The position numbers were made by a program, and so were the translations under genes. This document shows, one piece after another, positions 2,985 to 44,441 of a stretch of DNA of 64,000 nucleotides (position 1 is the stretch's first letter; each line of letters begins with the position of its first letter). The notes below the pieces were generated by a model that ran no database searches, was not told the origin of the DNA, and saw only the letters and a program-made list of their open reading frames with translations. This stretch comes from Fasciola hepatica (lineage: Eukaryota > Platyhelminthes > Trematoda > Plagiorchiida > Fasciolidae). The DNA lies in NCBI GenBank assembly GCA_948099385.1, contig CANUEZ040000117.1, positions 3,148,001-3,212,000 on the forward strand. Reading direction: 5' to 3'.

Positions 2985-3186
2985 ACTGGGCCGTTGAGAA
3001 TATGCGATTCCCACTGCAAAAATGGCCCCAACGTGCCTACAACTCGAACACAAGGTGCGAACTTCAGCTATGCTTGTCCGCCTGCAAGCTAGGGTGACGA
3101 GCCGGAATGGATAATAACAACTCACGGCCCGCCCGAACCTCCCGAACCCCTAACCGCACAACGAAAACGGACCCCACTAGCAAATC
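2985..3186 (-). repeat. Copy of a CR1-like 5' UTR without the TRIM insertion (related empty site)
   Basis: Read on the minus strand, this block matches 8331-8394 joined directly to 9048-9175. Shared words include TTTTCGTTGTGCGGTTAGGG, GTTCGGGCGG, GTGAGTTGTTATTATCC, AGCTTGCA and GCACCTTGTGTTC. The 653-bp LTR element present at 8395-9047 is absent here, so this copy shows the sequence before insertion. Similarity fades near 2985. It is either the 5' end of the minus-strand LINE or a truncated neighbour. Confidence 0.75.
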
Positions 3187-4307
3187 GAATCGAATCAGGT
3201 CACAGGAACAAGACCAAGGCTTGCCACGTTTTCCAGGTTCTAGCTCCGTAAGCCCGGGATTTTTTCAACTTATTTCCATGTCCCCTTTGTTCTGGAATCT
3301 ACGGCCACTTGAAGTAGACTATCTGGTCTAAGGCCAGAAAAGCCCTTCATTACCTTGAACGTTTCTATGAGATCCCCTCGACTTCTCCTTTCCTACGGGG
3401 AAATTTTCTAATCACAGAGTCTCTGCTCGTCAGTCTTACTCTTTTGCCCCTCAACCATTCGCGTGGAAAGACGTTGGACGTTCTCTAAGCAGGTAGCGTC
3501 CTTTTTGCAGAAGGGTGACCAAGCCTGCACGCTACCTTCTAAGTGAGGTCGTAATATAGCCATGTAAATGGGTGTGAATACCTCCGACTGCCGGCAAGAT
3601 AAAGCTGATCACAGTCTAAGGAGCTCCCCACGAGCCTTTTGTGCAGCAGCGTTGCACTGCTCCGACCATTTGAAGTCACTGCTCATGATGACCCCAGAGT
3701 CATTAACCTTACTGACTGTTTCTATGGTGAACAGCCCTTGATCATGGACGACAGTTAGGCCCTCTTTTGTCTTTGACAACAAATGGCTTTTTCCAGCGTT
3801 CAGAGGTAAGTCCCATTCGTATGCCCAGTCCAGAACGGTACCTATATCCCTGCCCATTCCACCCTACCCTCAGATCCCTGAGGTACATCACTGGTGGCGT
3901 TCACCAAACTGGGGCACCTGACCCACACTTTGACAAAAAACGTCCCGTAGGAGATGGATTCCTCCAGCCACCTAAATGCTGGCCCACCTATATCAAACAT
4001 CTCCATCTTGCATAGCAAAGGACGACGATTACCGGAGTCGAACGCCTTGCTCAAGTCGAGGTAGCATACCTCAACTAGCTTGCCTTCGTCCAGCCGTCGA
4101 GTTACTTCATCTAAGAAGCACAAGAGATTGGTCAGACAAGATCTATTTTTCAGGAATCCATGCTGGGCCGGACTTAACATGGAGTGCTCCAGTACTTGCT
4201 GGCAGATGTGGGCAGGGATGATCTTACATAGGATGCTAGGTAGACTTGCCGGCCTGTAGTTATGCATAGCCGACTTAGGTCCACTCTTATGTATCACCAC
4301 GACGGGA
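3187..4307 (-). pseudogene. CR1-like reverse transcriptase fragment with the catalytic box deleted
   Basis: Minus-strand RT remnant, 5' truncated at VIHKSGPK. It carries NYRPASL, AQHGFLKNRSC, VCYLDLSKAFD and DVPQGSE, then jumps to GTVLDWAYEWDLPLNAGK. The stretch that should hold the YADD catalytic motif is missing, a deletion near 3855. After a stop the C-terminal part continues as YMAILRPHLE, NVQRLSTRMV and LIETFKVMKG. The 3' end is a short GATTC-type repeat at 3186-3200. It cannot encode an active enzyme. It abuts another CR1-like 3' tail at 4308 and a CR1-like 5' end at 3186, all in the same orientation. Confidence 0.8.
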
Positions 4308-5539: not shown

Positions 5540-6400
5540 AGGGGATACCCTTCCTGGGGAGATGAAGACCAAGTGCTGATGAGCAAGAACGAGGGAGGTC
5601 CGCCTTCGTGGAGCTGGGGATCTCCAAATACCGAGGTGCGTTCCTCGACGCGAGGGCCAGATTAGGCATGGACTCCAGGAGAGGTATTAGAATAAAACCG
5701 GATAACTCTACATCCGGGAGGGTCAAAACCGGCTCTTTTGAAACGATCGATTTATCAAGGGTAGAACTACCAGTTTTCGAGCCGAACAAGTGATCAAAAT
5801 ACAGAGCTTTTCAACAGCCTCCGACAATTTAAGTTACAGGGCTGAACTCAATGCAATGCATACATTGGAGGGCATAGTCCGCCACCTCTCGCCCGAGCTA
5901 CAGGGTCGGCGGGCGGAAGATGCGGAACTTAAAGGCAGGAGCGACCATGAGGCTCACTTCGACGATTTGACCGAATAATTGGACCGTCAAACCAGGACAG
6001 CCAACAGTAGATTTGGTCGGCTCATCCGGGACAAAAACCAGTTGAACAAGCCTAGCACCAACCAGGCTCAAACCACTGCGCGGGAACACCCGAAATATCA
6101 GCATTGGCCCAAGTCGCACAACATTTCATGCGAGGCTGTGGCGCATCCAGGTTGCAGGTCCCGCGGCGCCAGCCATGCGCTACCAGAATGCGCGAGGTTC
6201 ATCAAGATGGCGATAGATAAACGTTGGAGAATGACGAGGATGACGGGAGCTCGCTTAATCTGCCTTAACACCACACAAGGAGCGGCAGCTTGCTGGATAA
6301 GAACCAGGTGTGGTCACGAGGGTTGTGAGAGCAGACAACGCCGATTGTTGTACCGGGTGAAAGAAACTACACCAGAGGCTAACAACAAGCCCAGTGTGAT
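5540..6400 (+). pseudogene. BEL/Pao-type gag remnant
   Basis: Fragments in changing frames read like the gag of a BEL/Pao LTR retrotransposon. There is an ELPVFEPNK segment, a long hydrophilic middle, DLTE followed by LDRQTRTANSRFGRLI, then a Cys/His-rich end with GASHALPECARF, IDKRWRM and CGHEGCESRQRRLLYR. The last part corresponds to the SHAL-C / KRW / C-x4-C-R region that ends Pao-type gag proteins. There are in-frame stops, for example near 5790 and 5976. No LTR was found in the window. Family is from motif order only. Confidence 0.6.
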
Positions 6401-6627
6401 TTATTTGAAGTCACGGTTTGTCAGTAAACCAGTGCGTTTAGGAATAGTTGCCGTGGGATTACTGACCCCACCTGGGGTGGACAAAGCATATGCTTTGTCG
6501 GCCGTGGATCAGACACAACTCTAGTGAAGGAGCGTTTTGCCGACAGACGCCGGCTCGCTAAGAGCACGACGTCATTAGCGGTGAACACGGTGGGCGGAAC
6601 AAAATTAATGATTGCAAGTCGGTTGCG
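6337..6627 (+). repeat. Left arm of a 291-bp near-perfect inverted repeat (BEL/Pao protease region)
   Basis: Matches the reverse complement of 7995-8285 over equal length with about three mismatches by eye (near 6345, 6568 and 6617). The arms are separated by about 1.37 kb. Confidence 0.85.
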
Positions 6628-7340
6628 TTTTCACCAACGACGAAGTCGAATCAACGGAGTCACCTACACGGGCTGATCCCCCCATGAGATCACCAACTTC
6701 GGTGAATACAACTCAAACTATGTGTCCCCCCCGCAGAATCTAACCGTTGTAGACTGGAGAGCTACTAATTAGATCTTCTCATCGACTGCGACCTGCCAGG
6801 GGTACATTATGTGCTAAACCAGAGTGGAAACCTCCAGGCACCCCATGCCGCACCCACAGCGCTTGGATGGATATTTTATGGTCCAGCCGGGGACGCTTTC
6901 CGTAAATTACGTATCACCAGAAACGGACCACAGAGAGTATCCATTGCAACGACTGTTCCAACAGGAGATTCACAACACTAGAGACGAAAGACTATCACTG
7001 CCTCGAGAGGACCACTCCGCTCGGCGGACAGTGAGACAAGGAACCAGAGGCTTTAAAAACTGTTCAAGATTCCGTTCCCATGGCGCAAACTAGCAGACCC
7101 TAGGACTGACAACAGAAACTATGCTCTGCGATGACAACTGTGATTGAAAGGAGGCTTCGTTCGAGGCCAGGATCTGTGGGAAGATACGCAGAAGTAATGA
7201 CGCGAAACGAGGCTTTCGGCCAAGTTGAAAGGGTGCCTTCAACTACCGACGGCCGGAAGAGGATTTGGTATCTACTTTACCACTCAGCACCTCAGAGGAT
7301 GTCCTCGAACTGCTTTCCCATTGTTGGGCATCAATAAAGA
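6401..7340 (+). pseudogene. BEL/Pao-type pol remnant: protease and start of RT
   Basis: Follows the gag remnant directly. A protease-like stretch shows VRLGIVAVGLL, GVDKAYAL, a frameshift, then GSDTTLVKERFADRR and VNTVGGTKLMIA. The indel falls at the aspartic active-site region. Further on, after several stops, come pieces like a BEL/Pao RT N-terminus: PWRKLADPRTDNRNYAL, then KVMTRNEAFGQVERVP and RIWYLLYHS. Similarity stops around 7340, well before any RT catalytic motif, so the element is truncated. The protease part is duplicated in inverted orientation at 7995-8285. Confidence 0.6.
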
Positions 7341-7829: not shown

Positions 7830-8285
7830 ACCTAAATGTCACCGGTGGGCTGGAAGACAGTTTACCGGATGATGGGGCAATAGGGAAATGGAGGGGGATT
7901 CGAAGTACAAACATTGACAGGATCTTGCACACGGTACTGCCAGAGAGCTGAAAGACAGAACACCCATTACTCCCGATTTCATCAATAGTGTAACCGCAAC
8001 CGACCTGCAATCATTAATTTTGTTCCGCCCACCGTGTTCACCGCTAATGACGTCGTGCCCTTAGCGAGCCGGCGTCTGTCGGCAAAACGCTCCTTCACTA
8101 GAGTTGTGTCTGATCCACGGCCGACAAAGCATATGCTTTGTCCACCCCAGGTGGGGTCAGTAATCCCACGGCAACTATTCCTAAACGCACTGGTTTACTG
8201 ACAAACCGTGACTTCAAATAAATCACACTGGGCTTGTTGTTAGCCTCTGGTGTAGTTTCTTTCACCCGGTACAACACTCGGCGTT
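7830..8285 (-). pseudogene. Inverted second copy of BEL/Pao protease region
   Basis: Minus-strand sequence from 8285 down to 7995 repeats 6337-6627, including the same protease frameshift. From 7994 to about 7830 it carries on as unrelated-looking or diverged pol sequence. It is the right arm of the inverted repeat. Confidence 0.75.
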
Positions 8286-8309
8286 AGCTGCCCGCCGTTA
8301 TCTGTCCTA

Positions 8310-8330: not shown

Positions 8331-8390
8331 CTGATTCGCTAGTGGTGGGCCATTTTCGTTGTGCGGTTAGGGGCTCGGGAGGTTCGGGCG

Positions 8391-8394
8391 GTTG
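8391..8394 (+). repeat. Target-site duplication, left (GTTG)
   Basis: GTTG directly before the left LTR, repeated at 9048-9051 after the right LTR. Confidence 0.8.
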
Positions 8395-8562
8395 TGTAAC
8401 GGCCAGAGTGGAGGCCGCCATCTTGTTGTTCGTTTAATGTAAGTGTTGGTGCCGTTGATACACTTACTGAGCCTCGGCTCATGGAGTTTTTCCCTTTTGT
8501 GCTTTTGCAGATCAACCACGCTCACCCCCCCGGCGGAAGATCACTGCTGCTTGCGTGTTACA
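8395..8562 (+). repeat. Left LTR of the TRIM-like element
   Basis: 168 bp, TG...CA ends inside a TGTAAC/GTTACA inverted motif. Identical by eye to 8880-9047, including the C7 run. Confidence 0.95.
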
Positions 8563-8566
8563 AATT

Positions 8567-8584
8567 TGGTGCCGCGACCCGGGA
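8567..8584 (+). promoter_or_regulatory. Candidate tRNA primer-binding site of the TRIM-like element
   Basis: TGGTGCCGCGACCCGGGA begins five bases after the LTR. Its complement ends ACCA and reads like a tRNA 3' end with a CCCGGG T-arm half. It resembles tRNA-Phe, but the tRNA identity is a guess. Confidence 0.7.
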
Positions 8585-8867
8585 CCGGAGGTTATGGGAG
8601 GCCTTGGTGATTGACCTGAAAATGGCCGTACAGATAATTGTGCTCTGTGAAGTGTGACACGGTCTTAATGTGGCCCAGTAGAGGTCTTTTGAATTGGCCT
8701 GCACGGAGTAATAAAGCGGAAGGCCCGATTGGTTGTATAGTTTTGAGGTACTGCGTAATCGGCAGTGAACCTGTAAAATGGCCTGCCCGAGGCGTGGTCC
8801 CAGGGAACTGAGTACTCCTGTGGTGTGATAGCGGAGTAAGTAACACTGTGGACAGTGTTCTTTCGTT

Positions 8868-8879
8868 GAGGGGGAGCAG
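8868..8879 (+). promoter_or_regulatory. Polypurine tract of the TRIM-like element
   Basis: GAGGGGGAGCAG lies directly against the right LTR, where the plus-strand primer should be. Confidence 0.75.
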
Positions 8880-9047
8880 TGTAACGGCCAGAGTGGAGGC
8901 CGCCATCTTGTTGTTCGTTTAATGTAAGTGTTGGTGCCGTTGATACACTTACTGAGCCTCGGCTCATGGAGTTTTTCCCTTTTGTGCTTTTGCAGATCAA
9001 CCACGCTCACCCCCCCGGCGGAAGATCACTGCTGCTTGCGTGTTACA
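8880..9047 (+). repeat. Right LTR of the TRIM-like element
   Basis: 168 bp, identical to the left LTR. Followed by the GTTG duplication at 9048-9051. Confidence 0.95.
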
Positions 9048-9247
9048 GTTGGTGAGTTGTTATTATCCTGTCCAGCTTGTCACTCTAGCTTGCAAGCGGG
9101 CAAGCATGGCCGAAGTTTGCACCTTGTGTTCAAGTTGTAGGCAAGTTGGGGGCACTTTCGCGGTGGGAATACGAATCTAGGAGGTTCGACGCACTGCAGG
9201 AATTATTTCTGTGGTTGTGCCATTCTGTGGACTATAATTTGCCCACA

Positions 9248-10396
9248 ATGCCTCCAAAAAGAGTCAAAAATAGTGCATCCAAGTGCCTAGTTTGTTCGAA
9301 AGTTGTTCGCTCACGCGACAAATCTCTTCAGTGTGATGGTTGTGATGGTTGGGTCCATCTTGAGTGTTCTGAAATGAGTATTGATCTTTACGAAGCCCTG
9401 GACAAATGCCGTGCAAAGTTGCTCAAGGTGCTGTGCATCAAATGCACCGAGCTATCAACACCTGTGTGGCCCGCAAAGCAGTCGGCGGAAATGGCTCTTC
9501 CTGTCACAGATACAGCAGCGTCATCAACTTCGTCGTCGTCATCATCATTAGCACCGTCAATCAGTTCATCGCCATCAATAGCAGCAAAATCAGCGGCGTC
9601 GTCATCGCCTTTTTCTCCGCCAACATCACTCTCACCGTCATCATTGCCGTCAGAAGGGGAAAATTCCGCCGAGGTATCTATTCCCGACTGTGCTACGTAT
9701 GCAGAGGTGGCTTCAACATCGGTCACTGGGCCAATCGGAACAAAGCGCCGCCAACGCCAGAAGCTACCTAAGTCTGCCTGCCATAATGCGGACCCAGTTG
9801 GCACTGATGTGGCCACGCAAGCACTAGACGATATTATAGGAACAAAACCCAGCCGTCAGAGCACCACCGCGGATGAAAGTAGACCGGCCTGGATAACAAC
9901 TGCGGATCGTCCACGAAGAGCGCCACCGTCGAGGAAACAGTGTTTCCTAATAGTGAACTTGCCTGAGACAAAGGAGACCACGGCACAGGCACGTCTGGAC
10001 CACGATATTGCGAGTCTCCGGAGTATACTAACAAAACTCTTTGTCCCCGGGGAGGAGGAGACCGCGGAGAAGTTGCGGGTGAAATCAGCATTCCGAATTC
10101 GCAAAGCTAGTGACGCTGAACGCCCCCGTCCACTGAAAGTAGTGCTGGACTCTGAGGAATCCGCGACTTCTGTGTTAGGAAGATCCCATCGGCTAAAAGG
10201 CGAGCAAGTGCGGCTGCACCGAGATCTAGACCCTGCGGATCGTGAGAAGTATAGAAATGCTTTGATTGAACGACGTGAACGAATGGAACAAGGGGAAAGG
10301 GACTTGATCATTCGGGATTTTCGGGTGCAGAAACGGCGCCCTCACTTCCGGTGGAGGCCGCTGACGCTAGTGTCCCTGTCAGCCCCCCCAAGCTAG
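9248..10396 (+). CDS. CR1-like LINE ORF1 protein with PHD-type zinc finger, 382 aa
   Basis: The open frame reaches back to a TTG at 9146, but the first ATG is at 9248 (MPPKRVKNSASK), which I take as the start. An N-terminal Cys4-His-Cys3 finger reads C-x2-C-x12-C-x2-C-x4-H-x2-C-x22-C-x2-C (CLVC, CDGCDGWVHLEC, CIKC), close to a PHD finger. A long Ser/Pro-rich low-complexity stretch follows. A C-terminal part from QCFLIVNLPETKE to RPRPLKVVLDS resembles an RRM-like nucleic-acid-binding fold and ends in a basic tail. The protein probably packages element RNA. A run of seven C precedes the stop codon, and the frame overlaps ORF2 in the -1 frame. Confidence 0.85.
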   Translation: MPPKRVKNSASKCLVCSKVVRSRDKSLQCDGCDGWVHLECSEMSIDLYEALDKCRAKLLKVLCIKCTELSTPVWPAKQSAEMALPVTDTAASSTSSSSSSLAPSISSSPSIAAKSAASSSPFSPPTSLSPSSLPSEGENSAEVSIPDCATYAEVASTSVTGPIGTKRRQRQKLPKSACHNADPVGTDVATQALDDIIGTKPSRQSTTADESRPAWITTADRPRRAPPSRKQCFLIVNLPETKETTAQARLDHDIASLRSILTKLFVPGEEETAEKLRVKSAFRIRKASDAERPRPLKVVLDSEESATSVLGRSHRLKGEQVRLHRDLDPADREKYRNALIERRERMEQGERDLIIRDFRVQKRRPHFRWRPLTLVSLSAPPS

Positions 10397-13239
10397 GACG
10401 CCCTGAACAAACGGATGTGGTAGCAGGCCGAGACAGTGTCGTCATCCTGTTGTCTAACGTCCGTGGTCTGCTGAACAAGAGGGATGACCTGGAACACCTG
10501 CTGCAGTCCAGCTCACCTACTATGATAGCATTGACGGAGACGTGGCTGAGTAACAATGTTCTAGACTCTGAAGTGTCCCTCCCTGGCTACACCCTATTCC
10601 GAGTCGATAGGAACTCTATCAGAGCTGGTGGAGGCGTAGCATTGTTCGTACGATCAGACATCCCAACCGTGCAGTTAGAGGCATTCGCAGACCCGCAAGG
10701 ATTCGGTGAAGCCATCTGGTGCCGCGTCAAGCTAACCGCCGGGGGCTTTAGGACAGTTGGAGTCATTTATCGGACACCTGCGGTCACTCCTCCAGATATG
10801 ATAAACTTATTGAGGAGATGGGCGTGCAACGGCCACTGCCTCGTCCTGGGCGACTTCAATGCTCCGCATATTGATTGGACGTCAAGCAGGACAGCGGCCG
10901 GGGCTGATCCTTTCTCTCGGAAATTACTGACAACGGTCCAAGAACTGGCACTACACCAACATGTTCAGGAATCGACCCGGAGGCAACCCGGCCACGGTTC
11001 CATTCTGGATCTGGTGATTTCTCCCAGGAGCTCGGACGTCGATAAGGTTGAACATCTCCCTCCACTGGGAAGCAGTGACCATATGGTGCTAGAAATTCAC
11101 TGGCGCACTGGTTCTTGTCCATCCCCTAGACCACACATGGTACGTAATGTTTGGCGCACTTCATTCGAAGATGTCCGGAGAGCGGCGTTAGACGTCAACT
11201 GGTTTCCCACGGATTCAGATGTCCACCGCGATGTGAACGAAGCTTGGGCGTTTATTCGTGACGGTATCTTGTACCTTATGAATACCTACTGCCCCCTCAA
11301 CCGGCGTAGACCTCGGGTTAAGGGACCGCCGTGGTTTGATCTGGAGCTCAGACGCCTGCTCAAACGACGAAATCGGGCCTGGCAGCGGTTCCGATCCACA
11401 GGTGAGGGTTATGATCTCTATCGCAGGATTCGTAACCAGTGTACCGAACAAAAACGAATAAAGCGGATGGCATTCGAGGAGGCCCTTGCGGTCGATGCGG
11501 TGCGAGCACCCAAGCGCCTGTTTGCATACTTAAAGCGCCGCACCAGAGCGAAGGTGGGTATCCCCGCGCTGATGAACAACGACGAAATGGTTGCAACAGA
11601 TGACGGAAAGGCTGAGACACTAGCCAAACATTATCTGTCAGTTTATTCTGTGGAGGAAGGTGCGCCAATCCCGATGGTGGATAGCTCGCCGCTGTTCATT
11701 ATGTATGATTTTGGGGAGCCGGAAGTGAACAAGATGCTCAAGTCCATCAAAACCCATAAGTCACCGGGACCGGACGACGTGCATCCGCTGATGTTGAAGG
11801 AGTTGGCGGACCAGCTAACTACACCACTAACGCGGTTGTTCAATTTGTCGTTGGCCACTGGAAGTCTACCTCAGGAGTGGAAAAAAGCAGTTGTTGTTCC
11901 GCTGTACAAGGGTGGGACAAAATCCACCTCGGCCAACTACCGCCCAGTTAGCCTCACTTCCGTGGTTGGAAAGGTCATGGAAAGGCTGGTGGCTGTTCGT
12001 ATACGTGAACATCTGGAGCGCTGTCAACTGCTATGCGCAGAGCAGCACGGTTTTCGGCGGAACAGATCATGTCTGTCAAACCTGTTGACCGCCCGTGAAA
12101 GTTGGTCGAACTCCAAGGCCGAGGGATATGTCACGGACGTCATCTTCGTGGACTTTAGTAAGGCGTTTGACAAAGTTCCTCACAATGGGCTGTTGCTGAA
12201 ACTCCGGGCCATGGGCATCTCAGGGCCCATGCTTCACTGGATTGAGGATTTCTTGGTCGGGAGAACCTTTTCCGTGAGAGTTGCACAGTCCCAGTCCGCG
12301 TGGTATCCAGTTGGCAGTGGCGTGCCGCAAGGCTCCGTGCTAGGACCCCTGTTGTTTCTAGTGTTTGTAAACGACCTACCACAGACGATTCGATCCAAAT
12401 GCCTTATCTACGCCGATGATCTCAAGATCTGGCGCACCATTCGATCGGCAGAGGATCGCAAGATACTACAGGAGGATCTGCAGGCCCTCGTCAATTGGTC
12501 GACCACCTGGGGTCTACCGATAAACGTGGACAAGTGCGCGAGCATGAGGATTGGTGGCCCCAACGATACTTCCGGCTACTGCCTTGGGAGTATCGTACTC
12601 CGTCACACGCAGGAGGAAAAGGATCTTGGAGTTGTTGTCACCAGCAATCTGAAGACAAGAGCACACACTGAGAGAGCGTGCTCCTCAGCGTGGAAGATAC
12701 TTGGTCCCATCCGCCGTTCATTTGGGCCTCTACCCCGGGACACTTTCCGACTGCTTTATGTCTCACATGTACGTCCTCGTTTGGAATATGGCGGTCCAGC
12801 TGTCTACCCGTGCACGGCGGCGGAAGTAGCCAAACTGGAACGGGTGCAACGTGCTGCCACACGCCTCGTGGCCGGACTGCGTGGGTTCAGCTATGAGGAA
12901 CGCCTAAAAGTCACCGGGTTGTTTCCCATTGCCTATCGGCGGCTTCGAGGCGACCTCATCTATGCCAGGCGCATAATCCGCGGTGAGTTGGGCCGGGAAC
13001 TACAGGCGGAATTCCCGCTCAGGAATAATAATCGTACCAGAGGACACAACCTGACGCTTCGTAAGGTGCATTCCACCGGCTTACCGGCCATCTATCGATT
13101 GTCAAGGAGGGTGACCAATCTCTGGAACGCTCTACCGACCGAAGTGGTGGAAGAGGAAACCGAGACACTATTCAAGAGGAAATTGGACCAGACCCTGAAG
13201 GTTTATTGGCGGAGCACCGACATCCAGCCGAGTCAATAG
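10351..13239 (+). CDS. CR1-like LINE ORF2: endonuclease and reverse transcriptase, 962 aa
   Basis: One uninterrupted frame encodes both activities of target-primed reverse transcription. In the numbering from 10351, the EEP endonuclease has N36, E63 (LTETW), D168/N170 (LVLGDFNAPH) and D243/H244 (LGSSDHMVLE). The RT has NYRPVSLTSVVGK, QHGFRRNRSC, D601 in FVDFSKAFDKVP, GVPQGSVLGPLLF and Y687-ADD (LIYADDLKIW). The C-terminal connector includes RPRLEYGGPAVYP and RVQRAATRLV. The codon at 10351 is GTG. The frame is open back to 10279 with no ATG, so translation probably depends on frameshifting or reinitiation from ORF1. No inactivating change seen. Confidence 0.95.
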   Translation: MEAADASVPVSPPKLGRPEQTDVVAGRDSVVILLSNVRGLLNKRDDLEHLLQSSSPTMIALTETWLSNNVLDSEVSLPGYTLFRVDRNSIRAGGGVALFVRSDIPTVQLEAFADPQGFGEAIWCRVKLTAGGFRTVGVIYRTPAVTPPDMINLLRRWACNGHCLVLGDFNAPHIDWTSSRTAAGADPFSRKLLTTVQELALHQHVQESTRRQPGHGSILDLVISPRSSDVDKVEHLPPLGSSDHMVLEIHWRTGSCPSPRPHMVRNVWRTSFEDVRRAALDVNWFPTDSDVHRDVNEAWAFIRDGILYLMNTYCPLNRRRPRVKGPPWFDLELRRLLKRRNRAWQRFRSTGEGYDLYRRIRNQCTEQKRIKRMAFEEALAVDAVRAPKRLFAYLKRRTRAKVGIPALMNNDEMVATDDGKAETLAKHYLSVYSVEEGAPIPMVDSSPLFIMYDFGEPEVNKMLKSIKTHKSPGPDDVHPLMLKELADQLTTPLTRLFNLSLATGSLPQEWKKAVVVPLYKGGTKSTSANYRPVSLTSVVGKVMERLVAVRIREHLERCQLLCAEQHGFRRNRSCLSNLLTARESWSNSKAEGYVTDVIFVDFSKAFDKVPHNGLLLKLRAMGISGPMLHWIEDFLVGRTFSVRVAQSQSAWYPVGSGVPQGSVLGPLLFLVFVNDLPQTIRSKCLIYADDLKIWRTIRSAEDRKILQEDLQALVNWSTTWGLPINVDKCASMRIGGPNDTSGYCLGSIVLRHTQEEKDLGVVVTSNLKTRAHTERACSSAWKILGPIRRSFGPLPRDTFRLLYVSHVRPRLEYGGPAVYPCTAAEVAKLERVQRAATRLVAGLRGFSYEERLKVTGLFPIAYRRLRGDLIYARRIIRGELGRELQAEFPLRNNNRTRGHNLTLRKVHSTGLPAIYRLSRRVTNLWNALPTEVVEEETETLFKRKLDQTLKVYWRSTDIQPSQ

Positions 13240-21867: not shown

Positions 21868-22044
21868 TGTAACGAGCGATTACAAATAAACATGCACAGG
21901 CGAAACGAATGAAGGGATCGGAATGACCTTTTATAGGCTCTAATCAATTTGGATTCGGATCATTCAGCTGAAATGGAATCAGATAACTATTAGCAAAAAT
22001 GTGAATGAAACATGGGATGAAACGAAAGCATTTAGTTCACCACA
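21868..22044 (-). repeat. 3' LTR of the Gypsy element
   Basis: 177 bp, TG...CA on the minus strand (starts TGTGGTGAACTAAAT, ends CGCTCGTTACA). Pairs with 25730-25906. Confidence 0.9.
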
Positions 22045-22057
22045 TTTACCCCCGCCG
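22045..22057 (-). promoter_or_regulatory. Polypurine tract of the Gypsy element
   Basis: Minus-strand CGGCGGGGGTAAA sits directly against the 3' LTR. Confidence 0.6.
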
Positions 22058-22122
22058 GGATTGTTTTGAGGAGTGACATGTCAGCGAAATACAAAAGATG
22101 CGTTATACATGGCGAATAATGT

Positions 22123-23336
22123 TTAATGACAGCAAAAGGGTTGATGAATTCTTGCTTCCCTGTATCTTAGTTGGTAAGGGTGCACGCGCTGTTGGAGTCT
22201 GCTGATTTCTTCCACTGAGTCGAACTTCGCAGGATCTTCTACGGAAGGGGTAAGCGAGCTACGATCTACGGGTTCATTGAGGCGCTTGTTTGTCGGATAT
22301 AGTGTCTGAATGTTCGGGCGCACCAGGAGTAGGCATATGTTCCGCTACTGGTCCCGGGTTGTGTGCAGATGGGGCAAGGTATTTAAGAGATACAGTATCT
22401 TCCCGGCTATCATCGTAACGTACGTGTGTGTAGTTGGGGTTGCACTCTACGATTTCCACTTATTCTACGAGAGGATCGTATTTAGATGCACGATTAACTT
22501 TACAGATAATTACACGGTCCGAGGTTAGTAGCCAACTGGGGAGTGACTTACCCGTGGTAGCTTTCCGGTTGTACTAGAAGAGACGTTCGCAAGGCGTGGC
22601 ATTGGTGGCCGTACACAAGGGAACGGATAGAATGAAGTGCGTGTGGAAGTGGAGCTTCCCATTGTGCAATGTGCATTTGGCGGGACTTAAGCGCGAGTGT
22701 GATGGATTTCCCGAGGGTACTATTGAGGCGTTCTGTTCGGCCGTTACACTGCGGATTATGGGCCGTTGTGCGGCTGGTTGCGATACCTCGGCTGTGAAGG
22801 AATGTTTGAAGTTCCTCGGATATAAACGAAGATCCACGGTCGGAGTGCATGAAGCTGGGCATTCCGAAAACAGAGAACAGGTTAGTTAAGCATTTAATAA
22901 CCATCGAAGTAGATATGTCAGAACAAGAATATATGAGTGGAAATCGTAAAAATCCATCAATAATAGTGAACAGAAAACGACTTCTGGTGATGCTAGGAAG
23001 GGGTCCTTTGAAGTCGCTGCTGAGATGCTCGAATGGTTGCGTTGCCTTCATGAGATACACTTTTGGTGGCCTGTAGAATCCAGGCTTGATTTCCGCACAC
23101 GTTTGACAGTGAGAGATGACAGACTTCACATCATCGACGGTGAAGGGTGGGTTTCGGTGTCGTGTAAAGTGGTACATACGCCTCACTCCAGGATAGCACA
23201 AAAAGTTATGCAGGGCACCCAAGTCAAAATTTGTCAAATTTCCACAGAATCCTCGAGAGAGTGTATCGGCCACGTGATTTTTCGAGCCAGGACGATAAAT
23301 TGTGTTGAATCGGAGATCTGACAGCTCCAAACACAA
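22123..23336 (-). pseudogene. Gypsy integrase and C-terminal pol, frameshifted
   Basis: Begins with the RNase H tail and spacer (FNTIYRPGSKNHVADTLSRG), then an integrase zinc-binding part (YHFTRHRNPPF, VISHCQTCAEIKPG). The catalytic core follows: SDFKGPLP, LFTIIDGFLRFPL, FGMPSFMHSDRGSSFIS and TTAHNPQCNGRTERLN, with D, D and the E-bearing region. The tail VRYDDSREDTVSLKYLAP continues to about 22274 in another frame, after breaks near 22550. Too damaged to be functional. Confidence 0.85.
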
Positions 23337-23368
23337 ACGCTGTATTTTTTTTATTTTTTTCGTTTAGG

Positions 23369-24480
23369 TTACTGACCATACATAAAAGTAACAGATCGTT
23401 GGTCAGTTATCAACTTGGAATGGCACCCAACCAGAAAATGACGCCATTTTCGCCAGGCCCCTACAATGGGATATGCTTCTTTCTCCACTGCCGAATACCG
23501 ACGTTCTGAAGGTGATAGGTTCCGCGAAAAGAAAGCAACTGGACGGCCATTTTGATTGAGAGACGCAGCGATTGCGATCTCTAAAGCATCTGTTTGTACA
23601 AGAGCGACACCCGGCCCGACAGTGACACAAACAGCATTTTCAAGCTGCTTTTTCAGTTGCTCAAAAACCTCCATGACATTCCCCGGAAGGGGGGAGGTTC
23701 GATTTCGAACAAAGACTAATTTTACCGGAGATGCGAGGTATCCACTGGAAATTGTAGACAAACATGCCGAATGCGCGCTCTTATGGTTTGATGTTAGTCG
23801 GCGGTGAAAGTTGTTGCGGCGGTTGTAGTCGTTCTGGATCTGGTTTGATTGTTCCTCCAGAAACTTCAAAACCGAGTAGAGTGAGATGCCGGGTACGAAT
23901 GATAGTCTTTTCATCGTTGAGTGTGATACCATATTTTCGAGCAACTTCGAGGAATTTGGACAGATTCAGATCATGCTCTTGTTCGGTTGTGCCGCAAATC
24001 ACTAGATTATCCACGTAGACGAATGTACCAGACAGCTTCTGGCTTTCGATGATGCTATCAACAGTACGCTGGAAGCAAACCACTCCGCTTGTGACGCCGA
24101 AAGGAATACGACAGAATTGATACAGCGTACCACAAGCTTCAGAAGCGGTATATATCTTCTCATCTGCACGAATAGGGATCTAATGATAAGCACGTGTCAG
24201 ATCAAGCGTGCTGTAGACTCCATATCTAGAGATTTTCCAGATCAAGTCGTCAGTCCGTCGGAATGGATGTGCATCGAGGAAGGTGTGTTGATCGATGGTT
24301 TGACTATAATCGATTAACGTATGGCGTTTGTGGCGATCATTGGGGGTTACTAAAACCTGTGCTCTTCACGGGGAATTAGACGGTTCGATGATTCCAGACT
24401 GCAACAGCCGTCCGAGTTCAGATTTGATAACGTCTATGTCTTGCACTGAATGACGTCTTGACTTTATGGCGATTGGTTTG
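23369..24480 (-). pseudogene. Gypsy reverse transcriptase and RNase H, broken
   Basis: RT is read in 24083-23781 (FVYVDNLVICGT, RHLTLLGFEVSGGTIKPD). The YVDD box is YVDN, which loses a catalytic Asp. RNase H is read in 23944-23369 with VALVQTDALEIAIAASL, GRPVAFFSRNLSPSERRYS, EKEAYPIVGAWRKWRHFL and KLITDQRSVTFMY. Upstream pieces to about 24480 hold the RT N-terminus in fragments. Several frame changes separate the parts. Confidence 0.8.
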
Positions 24481-24516
24481 CAGTTCGGTGCTAAATGCTG
24501 AAAGAGAGGTTGCGGG

Positions 24517-24800
24517 TTAACGTGGGCAGCGAGAAGACCACAGAGAGTTAAGGGAGGCTTGCTTCCAAAAAAGGAATCTCGACGGATTTGTGTAATTTAA
24601 GAAAATCATGACCAAGGAGTACGTCCTTACACAAGTCGGGGAGAACAAAGAGTTTAATATGGCCGTAACGATGATCTTTATACTGGATAGAAGAGTGAAG
24701 GTGACCACAGGAAAGACTAAAAAAAGGTGTAGAAGCCATTGTGACTCGTTTCTGTGGGGGAATGACTGGCCAACGGTGTTTATCAACAACAGATTTAGAG
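24517..24800 (-). pseudogene. Gypsy aspartic protease remnant
   Basis: Two frames overlap here. One carries INTVGQSFP and a hydrophobic stretch. The other ends CKDVLLGHDFLKLHKS, which fits the LLG-DFL segment near the C-terminus of retroviral-type proteases. The active-site D-T-G could not be read cleanly. Confidence 0.5.
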
Positions 24801-24848
24801 ATGTAACTCAGCGAAATGACTGTGTCAATAAGAGCATGTACTGGGATG

Positions 24849-25712
24849 TTATTGTTTTTTGTTAATTACAGCATTAGAGAGACAGGTTGGAACAGTAGCG
24901 ATGGTGACAACAGATAAGAGCGAATTGGTAGTCGCGGGAACAAATCGCCGGGATACTGTTATCGCTTGAGACGAAGATCGACATACTCGCTGAGAGTGTC
25001 CTTTTTTACCACAAGATTTACACAGAGCTTCTCGGGCTGGACAATGTATTCTAAGGTGTTTATCGAGACCACAAAAATAACAGGAAATTGCTGTTGTGAG
25101 AACAGGATTCTCGGCTGAAACAGAGTTAACCTGCAGGTCGGAAGATGTGTTTTTGTCAGGTAGGGAATACGAAGATGAGTCAACAGCATATACCATGGAT
25201 TGCTTTTGAGCTAATTCTAATTGTCTTGCAATATCGTAAGTAGTTTTGAGGTCTAAATTTTTCTCTTCCAACAGTCTCTGACGGATGTGATTCGACGACA
25301 GTCCACGAATAAACGCATCGCGAATAAATTCCTCACGATATTGCTCAGCACTGACAGATTTGAAATCACAGTCGGCAGAAAGAGCTTTCAGATTCTGAAG
25401 AAACTGATCGAGAGACTGACTATGTTCTTTTCCTGTAGTTGACAGTACATGTCGAGCGAAGATAGCATTTTTTGGTTGTATGCATAAACTTTCCAGAGTA
25501 TTTATAGCCTTGTTGTAATCTTGTCAATCTGCAGTATGTCTGTAGATAGATGGAGCGATAAGTTTCATCAGGGTGGCTAGTTTGTCAATGTGAGGTGAAT
25601 CAACAGCAGTGAGAAAGTTGTCAAAGGTTTCTTACCAACTAATCCAGTTGTCCGAAGCGTCCGACGGGTGAGGATCAACGTCGAAACGATCAGGTCGGAG
25701 TATACGTTCCAT
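24849..25712 (-). pseudogene. Gypsy gag with two CCHC zinc knuckles
   Basis: Starts at an ATG about 25712 (MERILRPDRFDVD), 18 bases from the 5' LTR. The capsid-like part contains WISW, stop, ETFDNFLTAV, LSADCDFKSVSAEQYREEF and IRDAFIRGLSS. Two knuckles follow, each C-x2-C-x4-H-x4-C (CYFCGLDKHLRIHC and CKSCGKKGHSQRVC). In-frame stops near 25634 and 25525 break the capsid part. The region 24849-25271 is still open. Confidence 0.8.
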
Positions 25713-25729
25713 ATTCAAACTGATTAAAT

Positions 25730-25906
25730 TGCAACGAGCGATTACAAACAAACACGCACAGGCGAAAGAAATGTATGGAACGGAATGGCCGTTTATGGAC
25801 TTTAATCAATTTGGAATCGGATCATACACCTGAAATGGAATCAGAAAAATAGTAGAAAAAATGTGAACGAAACATGGGATGAAACGAAAATATTTAGTTC
25901 ACCATA
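25730..25906 (-). repeat. 5' LTR of the Gypsy element
   Basis: 177 bp matching 21868-22044 with scattered substitutions. The outer end reads TA where TG is expected. Confidence 0.9.
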
Positions 25907-39300: not shown

Positions 39301-42300
39301 TTTCTCATTTGGATCTTGTAATCTACCATTGGAAGCAAGAACGGCTCAAAAACGACAGTTGGTAGGTAACATTCCTCATAGTATGGTGAAATGCAATGAT
39401 CAAAGGGATTATGCCAGTCAATTACGAGAACAGCATGTTTTTCAAGAACGTATCCACCCCCGTAGTTTTGGATTTCTATGTTTGTTACGGAAAACGATAG
39501 CACTAGTCCCATGCGGACCAAATGATGTCCCTCGAAAACACCATCAACGACACCGGGATTTGCTAATTATAGAATCAAAAGTGCTTTTTAAACCGCAGAG
39601 TGACCGTTTAAAGCTACCGACGTAATCCGGCGGCCCAGTTGGTGATATATCAACCAACCATATGTGTCATAATCCCCTCATACAGTGTTACGGAAAAGGT
39701 AGGAAGTCAATGCGTTGCGTTGTTGTCACCATGAAAAACACTCATTTATCGTCCTCCGGTCGTAACCACCCTAATTAACTAAGGATAACTGCGGATAACA
39801 CCATCCTTAGCTAGTGTTTTATTCACAAGATTAGTACGGATGGACTTCTTGTCAAGGGTCTTGTTCCACCAGCGTAGATCATCACCACACAACGCTGTGG
39901 CCGTAATCAACGGAATCGACAAATCTCCTCCGCTGCAATGGAACAGACGGAGAGAGCCAATACCTTGGCCAACACGTTCTCCGAACTTAACCCACTGATT
40001 TCTCCCCTGTGGGGCTATGTGAAGCGTCGGGTGTACAACTCGAAACCCGAGAATCTCGAAGATGTAAAAACCACAGAAAAGCATCAACAGAGAGCCACAT
40101 CAACGATCTGGTCAGTTCTTCAAACCAATAACTTCGTACTTCTTCATTCGGTTTTGTTTGGCTTCGTTGCAGCAACATGGAAATAAAAGTAAAATATCAG
40201 GAAGCAAGAAGAAAAAATATAGAAAAGAAACGAATGATAACCATATGGACGAGTGAAAAGTGCGTGTACACCACTGACCGCGACACCTAGCCAAGTTGCC
40301 AATCATCGAGGTGGACGAGTCTCGTCGACCCCAATCAGGGAGCCTAACACGTACTATTCAGCCAAGTACGGTGACCAAGATTTTCATACCTATTCGCCGT
40401 GTCATGGACTGATCATCTCACCTAATCGTCCAATCACTGCCAGCTCGGAGGAATAATGTACAAAAACGGACTGTACTGCTCAACAGGTTTTTTTCCTTCA
40501 TTCCACAAAAATCGGCACTGCTTTTCCAAATTGGCACCATCATTCAGTCATATCAACGCAAGGTAGTTTGCTTTTTTGTACAAATCAAATCACAGGCGTC
40601 ATTAACTTCGATAATAAACTTTCATGTCTACACATAAAAGTAGACAGAACGAACCTCGTTCAGCAGGAATACACGCGCCTAGTGTCCCACAAGCTTTATT
40701 GTATTTATACGGAGCTTATCTTCGTGAAGGAACTCTGGCCTGATCTGAATGACTGTAGTTCTAAGACATGTTAGCTAACGTATTCAAGCAACATATGAGC
40801 CGAACTCGCGAACCCCAACCCGGGAATCGAACACGCTCAACACAGCCAAATCCATTGTTTAAGGTATTCATAACGTCTCGTCATGAACTAATCACCTTGA
40901 CCCACCTTACAGTTACTACATGCTTCAGAAGAAAAGGACGTCGATCTGAAGAAGTCTCCTTGTGCGAATGAATTCTCAATCGGAACCAAGTATAGGTTTT
41001 CCTGCCCGTGAACTCTGGGAGATCACATTCAATGTGTTACCACCACCGATTTGTTCGCCCTTGACCCAGCTGCTTGAATCAAACAAACTGAACTTGAATC
41101 CGACCCGCCTCAGCTCCCGTGTTCCAACTTGTTCTTCTACTATCTGCATGACATACCTACTAGCTCATGTCTCCGTGTCATCTATGGGCCTCTAACCCGT
41201 ACCTGTGCTCCGCCCCTATGACGAGACTGCATCTTGGCGTGACGTGATGGCTTGCATGCCTCCATGACCCAAAGTGCTATGCACGATGGTTTCCTTAAGC
41301 CGGAGATTCAATCATGCCTGAAAGGTCAATGGGTAAAGGTCAGATAAAACCCAGTCTCTGAACCAGTTGATGGGCAACATTTGGTTCTAACCCCTGTGGC
41401 CCTGGAGAGGACACTCCAGCGAATAAATACGGAGAGGAACATTTAACCGGTTTAAAAACTTCCACGAGATGGACATGGAGCGTCAGTGGTCTCTCTCGAG
41501 GGTGCAGGAAGTCATCGCACTTCACTGGGCAGCTATCGTGCGCCTAAGCAGGGCAGTCCCCAGCCCGAAAGAGGCTGCCCCGTCAACGTTCCGCTTGCTC
41601 TATTGGGTGTATGGGGTTGAGGACTGAGTCCGAAAGGCTGATCGGTAACAAAGCACTAACGAAGACAAGACAACATGCTCGTGACACACCGGAAGAATTT
41701 ACTTCACGGATTCTTCGGTCACGTTCCATTGCTGGGTTAATGCCTCTAAAACGATGGATATCTTCGACATCAGTTGATCTGCCGGATGCACGCAGATCCA
41801 TCATTCCGGATGCTACATTCAATGAAGTGCGTAAATCTCTGAGACGCCAACTGACTAGGAACCTGAGAAATGACCGCGGGCGGCGGTGGATTGCGAAATG
41901 TAGAGAAATGGAAAAAGGTGCATCCATTGGCAATGCTCGCAACTATCACCGTTTGATTAGAGGTATCGGTCCACGGAAGCCTGGTGTGAGTGAGTTAATT
42001 AAGGAATCCGACGGCTCACTGATTCACTCTCAGGAATGTCGTCTAGACCGTTGGGCGGAGCACTTTAAGGAACAATTCTGTTGGCCAACTTCAACGGTGG
42101 ACCTTCCAAATATACCTGCCACAGAAACGATGCAGGTGGATATCAGTCCTCCATCAGAGATGGAGATTATGCGCGAAATCGGTTACTTGAAAAGGTACAA
42201 AGCCACTGGACGAGATGGGTTGTCTCCATCTTTTCTCGAGGATGGAGGTGAAGGTTTGGTTTCGGAGTTAACAAAACTCCTCCGTGTTATTTGGGATAGT

Positions 42301-44441
42301 GAGCAGATTCCCAGGGAATGGTCTGAATCAATGATTGTGCCGATTTACAAGAAAGGTGACGGGGCCTCTTGTGAAAACCACAGAGGAATTAGTATCGCAC
42401 CCAAACTGCTCACCGGTCTTATTCTCCACCGATTATACGGCGCACACGAAATGTGCACAAGTGAGAATCCACCCGGTCAGGTATGCATCGACCACATCTT
42501 TACTATTCGGCAAACCTTAGAGCACAGACACATCTTCCGTTGGCCCACGATCTTAGTGCTTCTTGATCTGAAAGCGGCGTTCGACTCAGTCGACCGCACA
42601 GTTCTCTGGCACTGCCTCTCACTGAAGGGTATGTCATAGAAGTTTATTTCTCGTTCCCAATGTTTGTATGCGAACAGCCGAAGCTGAGTTCGTGCTTACG
42701 GAGATCTTTCCCCTGAATTCATCACGCTAGGAATGGTGTTCGTTAGGGTTGCCCTCTTACGCCCTTCCTCTTTAGTTCGGTAATTGAATTGATTCTTGAG
42801 ATAACCCTATCCTCGTGTGAGAATAGCGGCGTCGATCATTGCTCAGGCAGTAGACTGTCTGACTCGGAATGCGCGGACGATATTGTTTTTTAGAGTGAAG
42901 ATCCAAGTACGTTGCAAGTTCGCTTAGATATCCTGAACAACAGCGTAGGAATGTTTGGGATGCGTTTTACACCTTCACAATGTAAAATGCTGCTGCAGGA
43001 CTGGGTTGGCTCAATAACAAACCTTGTGTTGGCAGGGGATGCTCTAGGTGGAGTGGACAAACTTTGTTACCTGGGTATTTACATTTCACCAGGTGGACAG
43101 ATATCAGATAAAGTGTCGTCACGTATACAGAAGGCACGTTTGGTTTTTTCCAACCTCCGTCATCTGTGGCATCGGTGTGATGTCCGGTTGTCAGTTAGGG
43201 GTAGAATGTACAGTGTGGTTGTTAGGTCCGTTCTTCTGTACGGTTCAGAAACATGGCCGTTGAGGGTAGAAGATAGGCAAAGACTGTCGGTGTTCGAGCA
43301 TCGATGTCTCCGTAGCATTGCCCGAGTATGGCGGGAACACCGTATTAGCAATGCTGAGATCAGGCGTATGGTGTTTGGAACCAGATGTCAGTCTGTGGAT
43401 CAAGTACAGGTTAGGGTGGTTGGGCCATGTGTTACGCATTTCCACCAATAGACTTCCTCGGCGTATGGTTGGAAACATTGAGTGACATGGCTAGGTTTCG
43501 TGGCCAGCGGCGTAGTTGCATTCGGACTCTTTCGTTTGATTTTTGATTTTGGGTCTTTCTCACCTTATGCTTCTATTATCTCTGCCCTGCACTGGACGAT
43601 GCTTGAAGTTAGCAACCGAAACCAGAGCACAGAAGTGCGAAGTTAGTGGTTGTATAAACTGGAACTGAACTGAACCTGTGCTCGGTCCGTTGTTAATGTT
43701 ACCGTGTTGTGTTGCGCCCTGTCAACCTGGTCTTGTGTTGATGACACTGACCAAGTGTTCTCACAGTGAGTGAATAGCATTCAGAGTAAACCTACGACGT
43801 GGTTGTTGTGGCCGAATAGTGAGATAAGTTACGTAATAGACGGAATACCAAGAGTTAATTGCCATGACTAATTTGAACGGGAGTCTGGACGGGGGGAATA
43901 GGTGAACAGGTGATGTGGGAACTCACTTGTGCGTCTTGATATAACTCCAAAGTGCGTAAAATATTTGCGATCGAGTGCCGGTATGCAGGGCCAGAATACG
44001 AGCCAAACGTTGATCCAACTTATATTCGGGTGGCTGATGATCTAACATCAAAATCACCGTGCATCGAACGTTGCTGTCTCCTCGACGTTTTACTTGAAAA
44101 CCATCCGTCTCCGCCGTGGTGGGTGTGCGATGCCATTCGACCAAATGATTGTCCGGTCCGTACAATTCTCGATCCAATTCGATAACCAAGGATTTGAAAA
44201 AGGACGAAAATTTTCGTCGGTATTTCGGATCATTGTTACTCGGCTGACCAGGCTAGCAGAGGAGTAACCAATTACGTGTTATTCGAATATGCGCAACTGT
44301 AACGGTGAAGCATCAACGCAGTTTCAAAACAGACTGAGCGCGTTGCAGTCACTACGTTACTGGGCTTTATGCAGATCGTCGGCGTGTGTGCCATTGCCGT
44401 CATATTTTGAGATTTTTTTGTGTCTCTTATGTGGTTTATTG

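What the first reader, a model, noticed from the sequence alone, without database searches (positions are those of the whole stretch)
8391..9051. Recent TRIM-like LTR element with its own empty site in the same window
Two identical 168-bp LTRs, a tRNA-like primer site, a purine tract and GTTG duplications define a 653-bp element with no coding capacity. It sits in the 5' UTR of an intact CR1-like LINE. The minus-strand block 2985-3186 carries the same UTR without it (GTTCGGGCGG followed directly by GTGAGTTGTT), which confirms the insertion point. LTR identity implies that an autonomous partner was active recently.
Basis: seen in the sequence. Interest (0 to 1): 0.75.

Follow-up and report, generated by a model that had tools for sequence, protein, structure and literature searches.

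The report
Miniature retrotransposon caught with its helper
A 653-base gene-less jumping element, present in at least 40 nearly identical copies in what is likely a flatworm genome, is found twice fused to pieces of a larger element that likely supplies the proteins it needs to copy itself.

Summary
The 1.5-Gb host assembly gives 43 near-full-length matches at 98-100% identity; 36 of 40 flank-checked units have exact 4-bp duplications. It is a new, young TRIM family.

Two of 39 examined TRIM loci are chimeras, each apparently one integration with its own 4-bp duplication, joining TRIM sequence to Ty3/gypsy coding sequence. They led to an autonomous family with open frames of 1461-1477 codons in 7 of 17 fetched loci, near-identical LTR pairs and the TRIM's primer site, LTR tips and 4-bp duplications. 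Mobilisation in trans is likely.

Unexpectedly, the helper LTR carries two short GT-AG segments (41 and 38 bp) that several copies lack at exact splice borders, at least twice independently. Spliced RNA is probably reverse-transcribed.

Corrections: the in-window empty site is a diverged paralogue with GCC at the target, before another LINE; other copies of this LINE in the scored list lack that leader. The primer tRNA, TRIM splicing and total copy number stayed untested.

The parts
8391..8394 (+). target-site duplication GTTG, left copy
8395..8562 (+). 5' LTR, 168 bp, TGTAAC...GTTACA
8439..8510 (+). intron-like segment inside the LTR (GTAAGT...TTTTGCAG, 72 bp); its donor GTAAGTGT pairs with ACACTTAC (8460-8467) in a predicted hairpin; splicing not shown
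8563..8879 (+). internal region, 317 bp, no Pfam match in the longest frames
8567..8584 (+). primer-binding site TGGTGCCGCGACCCGGGA, exact in 14 of 17 fetched helper loci
8868..8879 (+). polypurine tract GAGGGGGAGCAG
8880..9047 (+). 3' LTR, identical to the 5' LTR (same intron-like segment at 8924-8995)
9048..9051 (+). target-site duplication GTTG, right copy
2991..3200 (-). diverged paralogous copy of the leader without the element (GCC at the target place)
9052..13239 (+). CR1-like LINE downstream of the insertion: leader, PHD-finger ORF1 (to 10396) and endonuclease-RT ORF2 (10351-13239)

Best explanation
The 653-bp block is a member of a young TRIM family (a gene-less LTR retrotransposon) that is likely copied and inserted in trans by the proteins of a Ty3/gypsy element to which TRIM sequence is found fused at two loci. 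Shown: anatomy, copies, 4-bp duplications, helper loci with open gag-pol frames, shared primer site and LTR tips, and the fusions with their 4-bp duplications. Inferred: TRIM RNA is transcribed from its LTR, enters helper particles with helper RNA, is primed at the shared site by the same tRNA (probably tRNA-His; recalled, not tested), is reverse-transcribed and then integrated by helper integrase. Occasional jumps of the reverse transcriptase between the two RNAs in one particle would give the fusions, both of which end in an inverted copy of the TRIM's first 25-31 bases, as a DNA strand started at the purine tract would leave. The helper's LTR holds two GT-AG segments; copies lacking both, with exact boundaries, are probably reverse transcripts of spliced RNA.
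For: Copies: 43 near-full-length of 47 matches, 98-100% identity, from 40 scored of 3308 first-look candidates. Duplications: 36 of 40 units 4 bp, 1 of 40 5 bp, 3 of 40 none flush (the two chimeras' TRIM parts, and L042 with 3 of 4 bases). LTR pairs: 7 substitutions in 6856 bp over 41 units, length variants mostly shared within a pair. Chimera L045: TRIM + RT-RNase H segment + inverted LTR start, duplication GATT. Chimera L040: TRIM + complete helper LTR without the two segments + primer site + protease-RT frame + inverted LTR start, duplication GTAG, with a second ordinary TRIM (duplication CAGT) at its edge. The two helper pieces overlap by 185 bp at 98.9%; no further match to them in 2.9-5.0 kb of flanks. 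Helper: 7 of 17 fetched loci have one open frame of 1461-1477 codons stop to stop; Pfam protease, RT, RNase H, integrase in the one scanned; exact 4-bp duplications in 10 of 11 loci judged (listing). Segments absent at exact borders.
Against: No RNA or protein data. TRIM and helper share almost no sequence beyond the LTR tips and the primer-site region (one 29-bp match), and the purine tracts are only similar. Other Ty3/gypsy families exist (a decayed one lies at 21868-25904 in the window) and were not surveyed for the same primer site, because that pattern search did not complete (14 tries). The 40 scored copies are the best matches to the window's copy, so the family's youth is overstated by selection. 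14 bases in L040 between TRIM LTR and helper LTR could not be placed, and the complete helper LTR there is not what a simple jump off the 5' end of a helper RNA would give.
Confidence: 0.82

Rival explanations
1. The TRIM is moved by a different autonomous family; the two fusions only show that this Ty3/gypsy RNA was sometimes co-packaged.
For: Sequence sharing with the helper is limited; at least one other Ty3/gypsy family exists in the genome.
Against: Identical 22-nt primer-site region in young helper copies, TGTAA/TGTTACA tips, 4-bp duplications and recent open-frame copies, plus two different fusions among 39 loci.
Confidence: 0.13
2. The fusions are assembly errors or later rearrangements between neighbouring insertions, not products of one reverse transcription.
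For: Two are few, repeats of this kind can be misassembled, and junction reads were not available.
Against: Each composite is bounded by matching 4-bp duplications (GATT, GTAG) and by TGTAAC/GTTACA tips, has the same inverted-end design, and lies in flanks without a match to the helper pieces.
Confidence: 0.06
3. The 41- and 38-bp LTR differences are ordinary indels spread by gene conversion, not spliced introns.
For: No RNA evidence; gene conversion between copies can spread one event.
Against: Both segments begin with GT and end with AG and are lost exactly at those borders. L059 equals L067/L068 at all LTR positions outside the segments but lacks both; L040 keeps two diagnostic bases of its own relative L062 while lacking both; the internal tree places them apart.
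Confidence: 0.12
4. The repeats flank a fixed part of the LINE, so there is no mobile element here.
For: It sits just upstream of an intact LINE ORF1.
Against: Many copies elsewhere at unrelated sites with different duplications; the scored LINE copies elsewhere lack it.
Confidence: 0.01

Closest known systems
ta-TRIM of taeniid tapeworms (PMC4558846; outline, sections 17 and 19 and found passages read)
   Same: Small LTR pair (about 198 bp there), TG...CA ends, primer site four bases after the LTR, no long reading frame, mostly 4-bp duplications in E. multilocularis, some tandem copies, a candidate autonomous LTR-retrotransposon partner (lennie).
   Different: There the partner was proposed from shared LTR tips, primer site and duplication length, and no intact copy was found; here open-frame partner copies and TRIM-partner fusions are present. 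The primer site there fits tRNA-Leu. Sequence homology was not compared.
biv-TRIM of bivalves and PbTRIM of an ant (PMC6934838, PMC3532108; found passages read)
   Same: Gene-less short LTR elements in animals; tandem arrays in bivalves.
   Different: No autonomous partner found for either.
CsRn1/PwRn1-type Ty3/gypsy elements of flukes (PMC2582038; found passages read)
   Same: Ty3/gypsy, gag-pol in one frame in PwRn1, 4-bp duplications, near-identical LTRs.
   Different: Primer site TGGTGAG/CCCCGT/A (tRNA-Trp) there versus TGGTGCCGCGACCCGGGA here.
Saci2/lennie elements of tapeworms (PMC12471100; found passages read)
   Same: TGT...ACA LTRs, gag-pol fusion, 4-bp duplications.
   Different: The passages read do not mention intron-like LTR segments; sequences not compared, so kinship is open.
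Helenus (PMC10886601; outline with abstract and section 10 part 1 of 2 read)
   Same: Animal families are TRIMs with 4-bp duplications.
   Different: Defined by a tRNA-derived sequence in the LTR, not seen here.

Membership tests
TRIM | two direct LTRs of about 100-250 bp, total under 1000 bp | tested here: met
   168 bp twice, 653 bp in all; sizes as given in PMC6934838 (passage)
TRIM | primer site just after the 5' LTR and purine tract before the 3' LTR | tested here: met
   8567-8584 and 8868-8879; the primer site is shared with a coding element; the tRNA itself was not identified
TRIM | no coding capacity | tested here: met
   longest frame 155 codons stop to stop on the minus strand; no Pfam match in three frames
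TRIM | short target duplications at many unrelated sites | tested here: met
   37 of 40 units with flush 4- or 5-bp duplications
TRIM | moved in trans by an autonomous LTR element | tested here: inconclusive
   indirect evidence only; movement itself not observed
Helenus | tRNA-derived sequence (boxes A and B) in the LTR | tested here: not met
   no box B with up to 2 mismatches on the + strand of the element; one one-mismatch match on the minus strand lies in the internal region; no tRNA by ARAGORN, bacterial code
retrozyme | hammerhead ribozyme in the LTR (definition from the search listing of PMC4918200 and recall) | tested here: not met
   no Rfam match at gathering score in the window
ta-TRIM | sequence homology to the taeniid family | not tested
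   no ta-TRIM sequence was compared
Ty3/gypsy (the helper) | protease - RT - RNase H - integrase order in one frame, LTRs, short duplications | tested here: met
   gag is named by position only, no Pfam gag match
CsRn1 clade (the helper) | tRNA-Trp primer site | tested here: not met
   TGGTGCCGCGACCCGGGA versus TGGTGAG/CCCCGT/A (passage)

The most novel reading that the evidence does not exclude
The helper is an LTR retrotransposon whose repeats carry two working spliceosomal mini-introns: spliced and unspliced RNAs are packaged together, both are reverse-transcribed, and copies with one spliced and one unspliced LTR record jumps between two RNAs in one particle. The TRIM living off it has an intron-like LTR core too, but hides its splice donor in a conserved hairpin and so keeps its LTR whole.
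Probability: 0.35. Interest if true: 0.75.

Novelty: new variant of a known kind. Interest (0 to 1): 0.62.

Why it matters
TRIM partners have been proposed for some families and not found for others (passage of PMC6934838). In ta-TRIM the candidate had no intact copy (PMC4558846, section 19), and in biv-TRIM and PbTRIM none was found (passages). Here two genomic fusions look like a physical record of the TRIM and a coding element sharing one reverse-transcription event, and partner copies with open frames are still present. The splice-state markers in the partner's LTRs would let single insertions report which RNAs entered the particle. Searches for LTR introns in the held papers listed 1, 2 and 3 papers, none evidently about this from title and opening of the abstract; their texts were not read, so no claim is made that this is absent from print.

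Tried and rejected
Rejected: fixed LINE segment; Helenus; hammerhead retrozyme; partner being the decayed gypsy at 21868-25904 in the window (its LTRs begin TGGTGAACTAAA and I see no TGG primer site after the LTR); an unusual overall fold of the TRIM LTR (z -0.16, 85 of 200 shuffles as stable). Led nowhere: LTR pattern in viral contigs (0 matches); naming the host (nearest named protein hits are flatworms at 37-67% identity). The helper gag-protease-RT piece found only 2 proteins at E up to 0.001, the named one from a hoverfly (Eupeodes), 26% identity. Not obtained: count of all copies, tRNA gene, TRIM LTRs without the intron-like segment, other elements with the same primer site; those pattern searches did not complete. 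My note gave the L045 duplication as AATC; that is the same duplication read on the other strand (GATT). My notes read L040:1118 as the start of the helper; the complete helper LTR starts at 1132, after 14 bases that I could not place. The letter-pattern test of LTR states misses diverged copies (L065 left, L074 right); the BLAST alignments cover the full 277 bp there and were preferred.

Full report
WHAT IS IN THE WINDOW. The block 8391-9051 holds two LTRs of 168 bp that are identical base for base. They start TGTAAC and end GTTACA, a perfect 6-bp inverted end. Four bases after the 5' LTR stands TGGTGCCGCGACCCGGGA (8567-8584), as a primer site complementary to a tRNA 3' end would; from memory, not from a call, this fits a tRNA-His acceptor. 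GAGGGGGAGCAG (8868-8879) precedes the 3' LTR. GTTG stands on both sides. The longest open frames (108-155 codons stop to stop, minus strand) match nothing in Pfam. A 168-bp exact repeat with these signals is not chance.

THE EMPTY SITE. The minus-strand block 3200-2991 is similar on both sides of the insertion point (92% over 59 bp, 87% over 119 bp) but has GCC where the occupied copy has TTG. It is a paralogue in front of what looks like another LINE, with frames at 2409-1099 (no Pfam match) and 1405-2 (endonuclease families; cut by the window's edge); the two LINEs were not compared directly. Searching the genome with the two flanks joined (269 bases) gave 41 matches from 40 scored of 322 candidates. 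Only these two window loci match the leader; the other 39 matches cover only query 203-269 or 208-268, around the start of ORF1. So the insertion is real, and the LINE copies scored elsewhere do not carry it.

THE FAMILY. In the 1.5-Gb assembly the 661-bp query gave 47 matches from 40 scored of 3308 first-look candidates; 43 of the 47 are near full length at 98-100% identity. I fetched 38 stretches that hold the 42 of these outside the window. With the window's own that makes 39 loci and 40 units to flank-check (an array counts as one unit): 36 have a flush 4-bp duplication, one 5 bp, three none. Of these three, two are the TRIM parts of chimeras (below) and one, L042, has GTAG/GTAC. Most duplications differ from locus to locus. 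Two loci are arrays that share LTRs (three internal parts with four LTRs, L016; two with three, L018), each within one 4-bp duplication. In 41 complete LTR-internal-LTR units the LTR pairs differ by 7 substitutions in 6856 bp (plus indels in one pair, L044); length variants such as the 7-C run are shared within a pair, as reverse transcription would make them; 28 of 41 internal parts are identical. With the intron rate of 7.1e-9 per site per year given for Echinococcus in PMC4558846 (passage), the mean divergence is about 70,000 years. The scored copies are the best matches to this one, so the figure is biased young; for the window's copy alone, zero of 168 only says younger than about 1.3 million years (95%, my arithmetic).

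THE PARTNER, FROM TWO FUSIONS. Two of the 39 loci are not plain TRIMs. L045 (501-2029, read on its minus strand) runs: TRIM LTR, internal part, a 3' LTR cut short, about 18 bases of TRIM internal sequence inverted, a stretch of Ty3/gypsy RT-RNase H within an open frame of 290 codons (Pfam matches RNase H only), then the first 31 bases of the TRIM LTR inverted. GATT lies on both sides. L040 (505-3654) runs: TRIM LTR, internal part, LTR bases 1-129, 14 unplaced bases, a complete LTR of another element, a primer site identical to the TRIM's, an open frame with protease and RT (gag by position only), then, across the shared letters GGCGGC, the first TRIM LTR bases inverted. GTAG lies on both sides. 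A second, ordinary TRIM sits on its right edge with its own duplication CAGT. The two partner pieces overlap by 185 bp at 98.9%. The surroundings (5.0 and 4.2 kb; 2.9 and 3.1 kb) hold no further match to these pieces. Each composite was therefore most likely built before one integration. An inverted LTR start at the far end is what a DNA strand begun at the purine tract would leave if it jumped onto partner RNA; this step is inference, and the complete partner LTR in L040 needs a longer RNA or a DNA step as template.

THE PARTNER ITSELF. A search with L040:1118-1700 gave 72 matches from 40 scored of 564 candidates. Of 17 loci fetched, seven carry one open frame of 1461-1477 codons, stop to stop: L059, L061, L062, L063, L064, L066, L075. 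L059's frame, the one scanned, matches aspartic protease, RT, RNase H and integrase. LTR pairs are 100% identical in L059, L062, L063, L066 and L067. Reading the borders in the listing, ten of the 11 loci with two clear LTR ends have exact 4-bp duplications (L059, L061, L062, L063, L064, L066, L067, L069, L072, L074); L060 has three of four bases. The other six of the 17 loci (L065, L068, L070, L071, L073, L075) were cut, tandem or unclear and were not judged. Shared with the TRIM: TGTAA at the left tip, TGTTACA at the right tip of most copies (CGTTACA in L062), the 18-nt primer site exact in 14 of 17 loci (within AATTTGGTGCCGCGACCCGGGA in the young copies), a similar purine tract and 4-bp duplications. 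Beyond that only one 29-bp match exists, around the primer site. Similarity alone would have made this pair hard to recognise.

INTRONS IN THE PARTNER'S LTR. The LTR comes in two main lengths. The 277-bp form (L062 type) holds GTATGG...TTTCAG (41 bp, from LTR base 31) and GTAATG...GACAG (38 bp); the roughly 198-bp form lacks both, exactly at those borders. Of the 17 loci, seven have both segments in both LTRs (L062, L063, L064, L066-L069); six lack both (L059, L060, L070-L073; L070 is rearranged, L071 shows only a left LTR), as does the L040 fusion; L061 and L074 are mixed; L065 has only a left LTR, with both; L075 has three LTR pieces and is unclear. In a tree of 2.3 kb of internal sequence, L059 groups with L061 (0.977) inside a clade with the 277-bp copies L067/L068 (1.000), and L040 groups with the 277-bp copy L062 (0.954); the place of L060 is weakly supported, and L065 has no alignable internal part. 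Leaving the segments out, L059's LTR equals that of L067, L068 and L061, while L040's LTR keeps two diagnostic bases of L062, and L040 shares L062's sequence after the primer site. The losses are therefore at least two separate events in the young clade, three if L060 is counted. Retrocopying of spliced RNA explains this best. L061 and L074 each have a left LTR without and a right LTR with the second segment, inside matching duplications (TGTG, ATAT). Normal reverse transcription makes both LTRs alike; a jump between two RNAs of different splice state would explain it (inference).

THE TRIM'S OWN LTR CORE. 8439-8510 reads GTAAGT...TTTTGCAG. The donor GTAAGTGT can pair with ACACTTAC in an 8-bp hairpin, though the LTR as a whole is not unusually stable (z -0.16). 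An older related LTR family (40 matches from 40 scored of 1664 candidates) has the same core. Across 16 older copies the donor arm is 98% identical to the TRIM and its pairing arm 84%, against 64-77% in the other four regions of the LTR; the pairing arm differs mainly by one base that still pairs, and 14 of 18 rows keep all eight pairs. The arms also hold the possible donor and branch site, so pairing need not be the reason. All 41 TRIM units have LTRs of 166-171 bp, so none has lost the segment, but they were picked for similarity. Donor hiding is an idea, not a result.

HOST. The nearest named proteins are from flatworms: for the LINE, Dicrocoelium (43%), Schistocephalus and Sparganum (37-39%), below unnamed hits of up to 54%; for another RT, Schistosoma (49-54% in the longer hits) and Fasciola (67% over half). 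A fluke is likely.

VERDICT. This is an ordinary kind of element, a TRIM, in an unusually informative state: young, with its likely partner present with open frames and fused to it twice. The partner's LTR introns are the least expected part and would repay RNA data.

Noticed in passing
L062, L059, L061, L074 and other helper loci: Helper LTRs come with or without two exact GT-AG segments of 41 and 38 bp; two copies with matching duplications have the second one in the right LTR only.
   Followed up: partly
window 3200-1 (-) and 8333-13239 (+): Two apparently different LINEs share a leader of about 200 bp that matched nowhere else among the scored places of the genome search; looks like exchange of 5' ends between LINE families.
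   Followed up: partly
L030:1152-1290, L040:3655-3657, L024:1192-1314: TRIMs sit four bases from, or right at the edge of, or close to older related LTRs or the chimera; possible preference for LTR ends.
   Followed up: no
window 21868-25904 (-): Decayed Ty3/gypsy element with 87% identical LTRs and broken frames; no TGG primer site seen after its LTR; its RT and integrase frames match Pfam.
   Followed up: partly
window 41772-43464 and 57015-58718: Inverted pair of retrotransposon copies 98% identical over 1.7 kb.
   Followed up: no
window 6331-6648 and 7974-8291: Inverted repeat of 318 bp, 96% identical, upstream of the LINE leader; CTGAACTGAACTGA stands next to it.
   Followed up: no
window 8414-8425: GCCGCCATCTTG in the LTR resembles a YY1 site (motif recalled, not scanned).
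   Followed up: no
L075:1-1003: Helper locus with a third LTR piece upstream and a left LTR starting just after the first intron-like segment; might be a transcript spliced in from outside.
   Followed up: no
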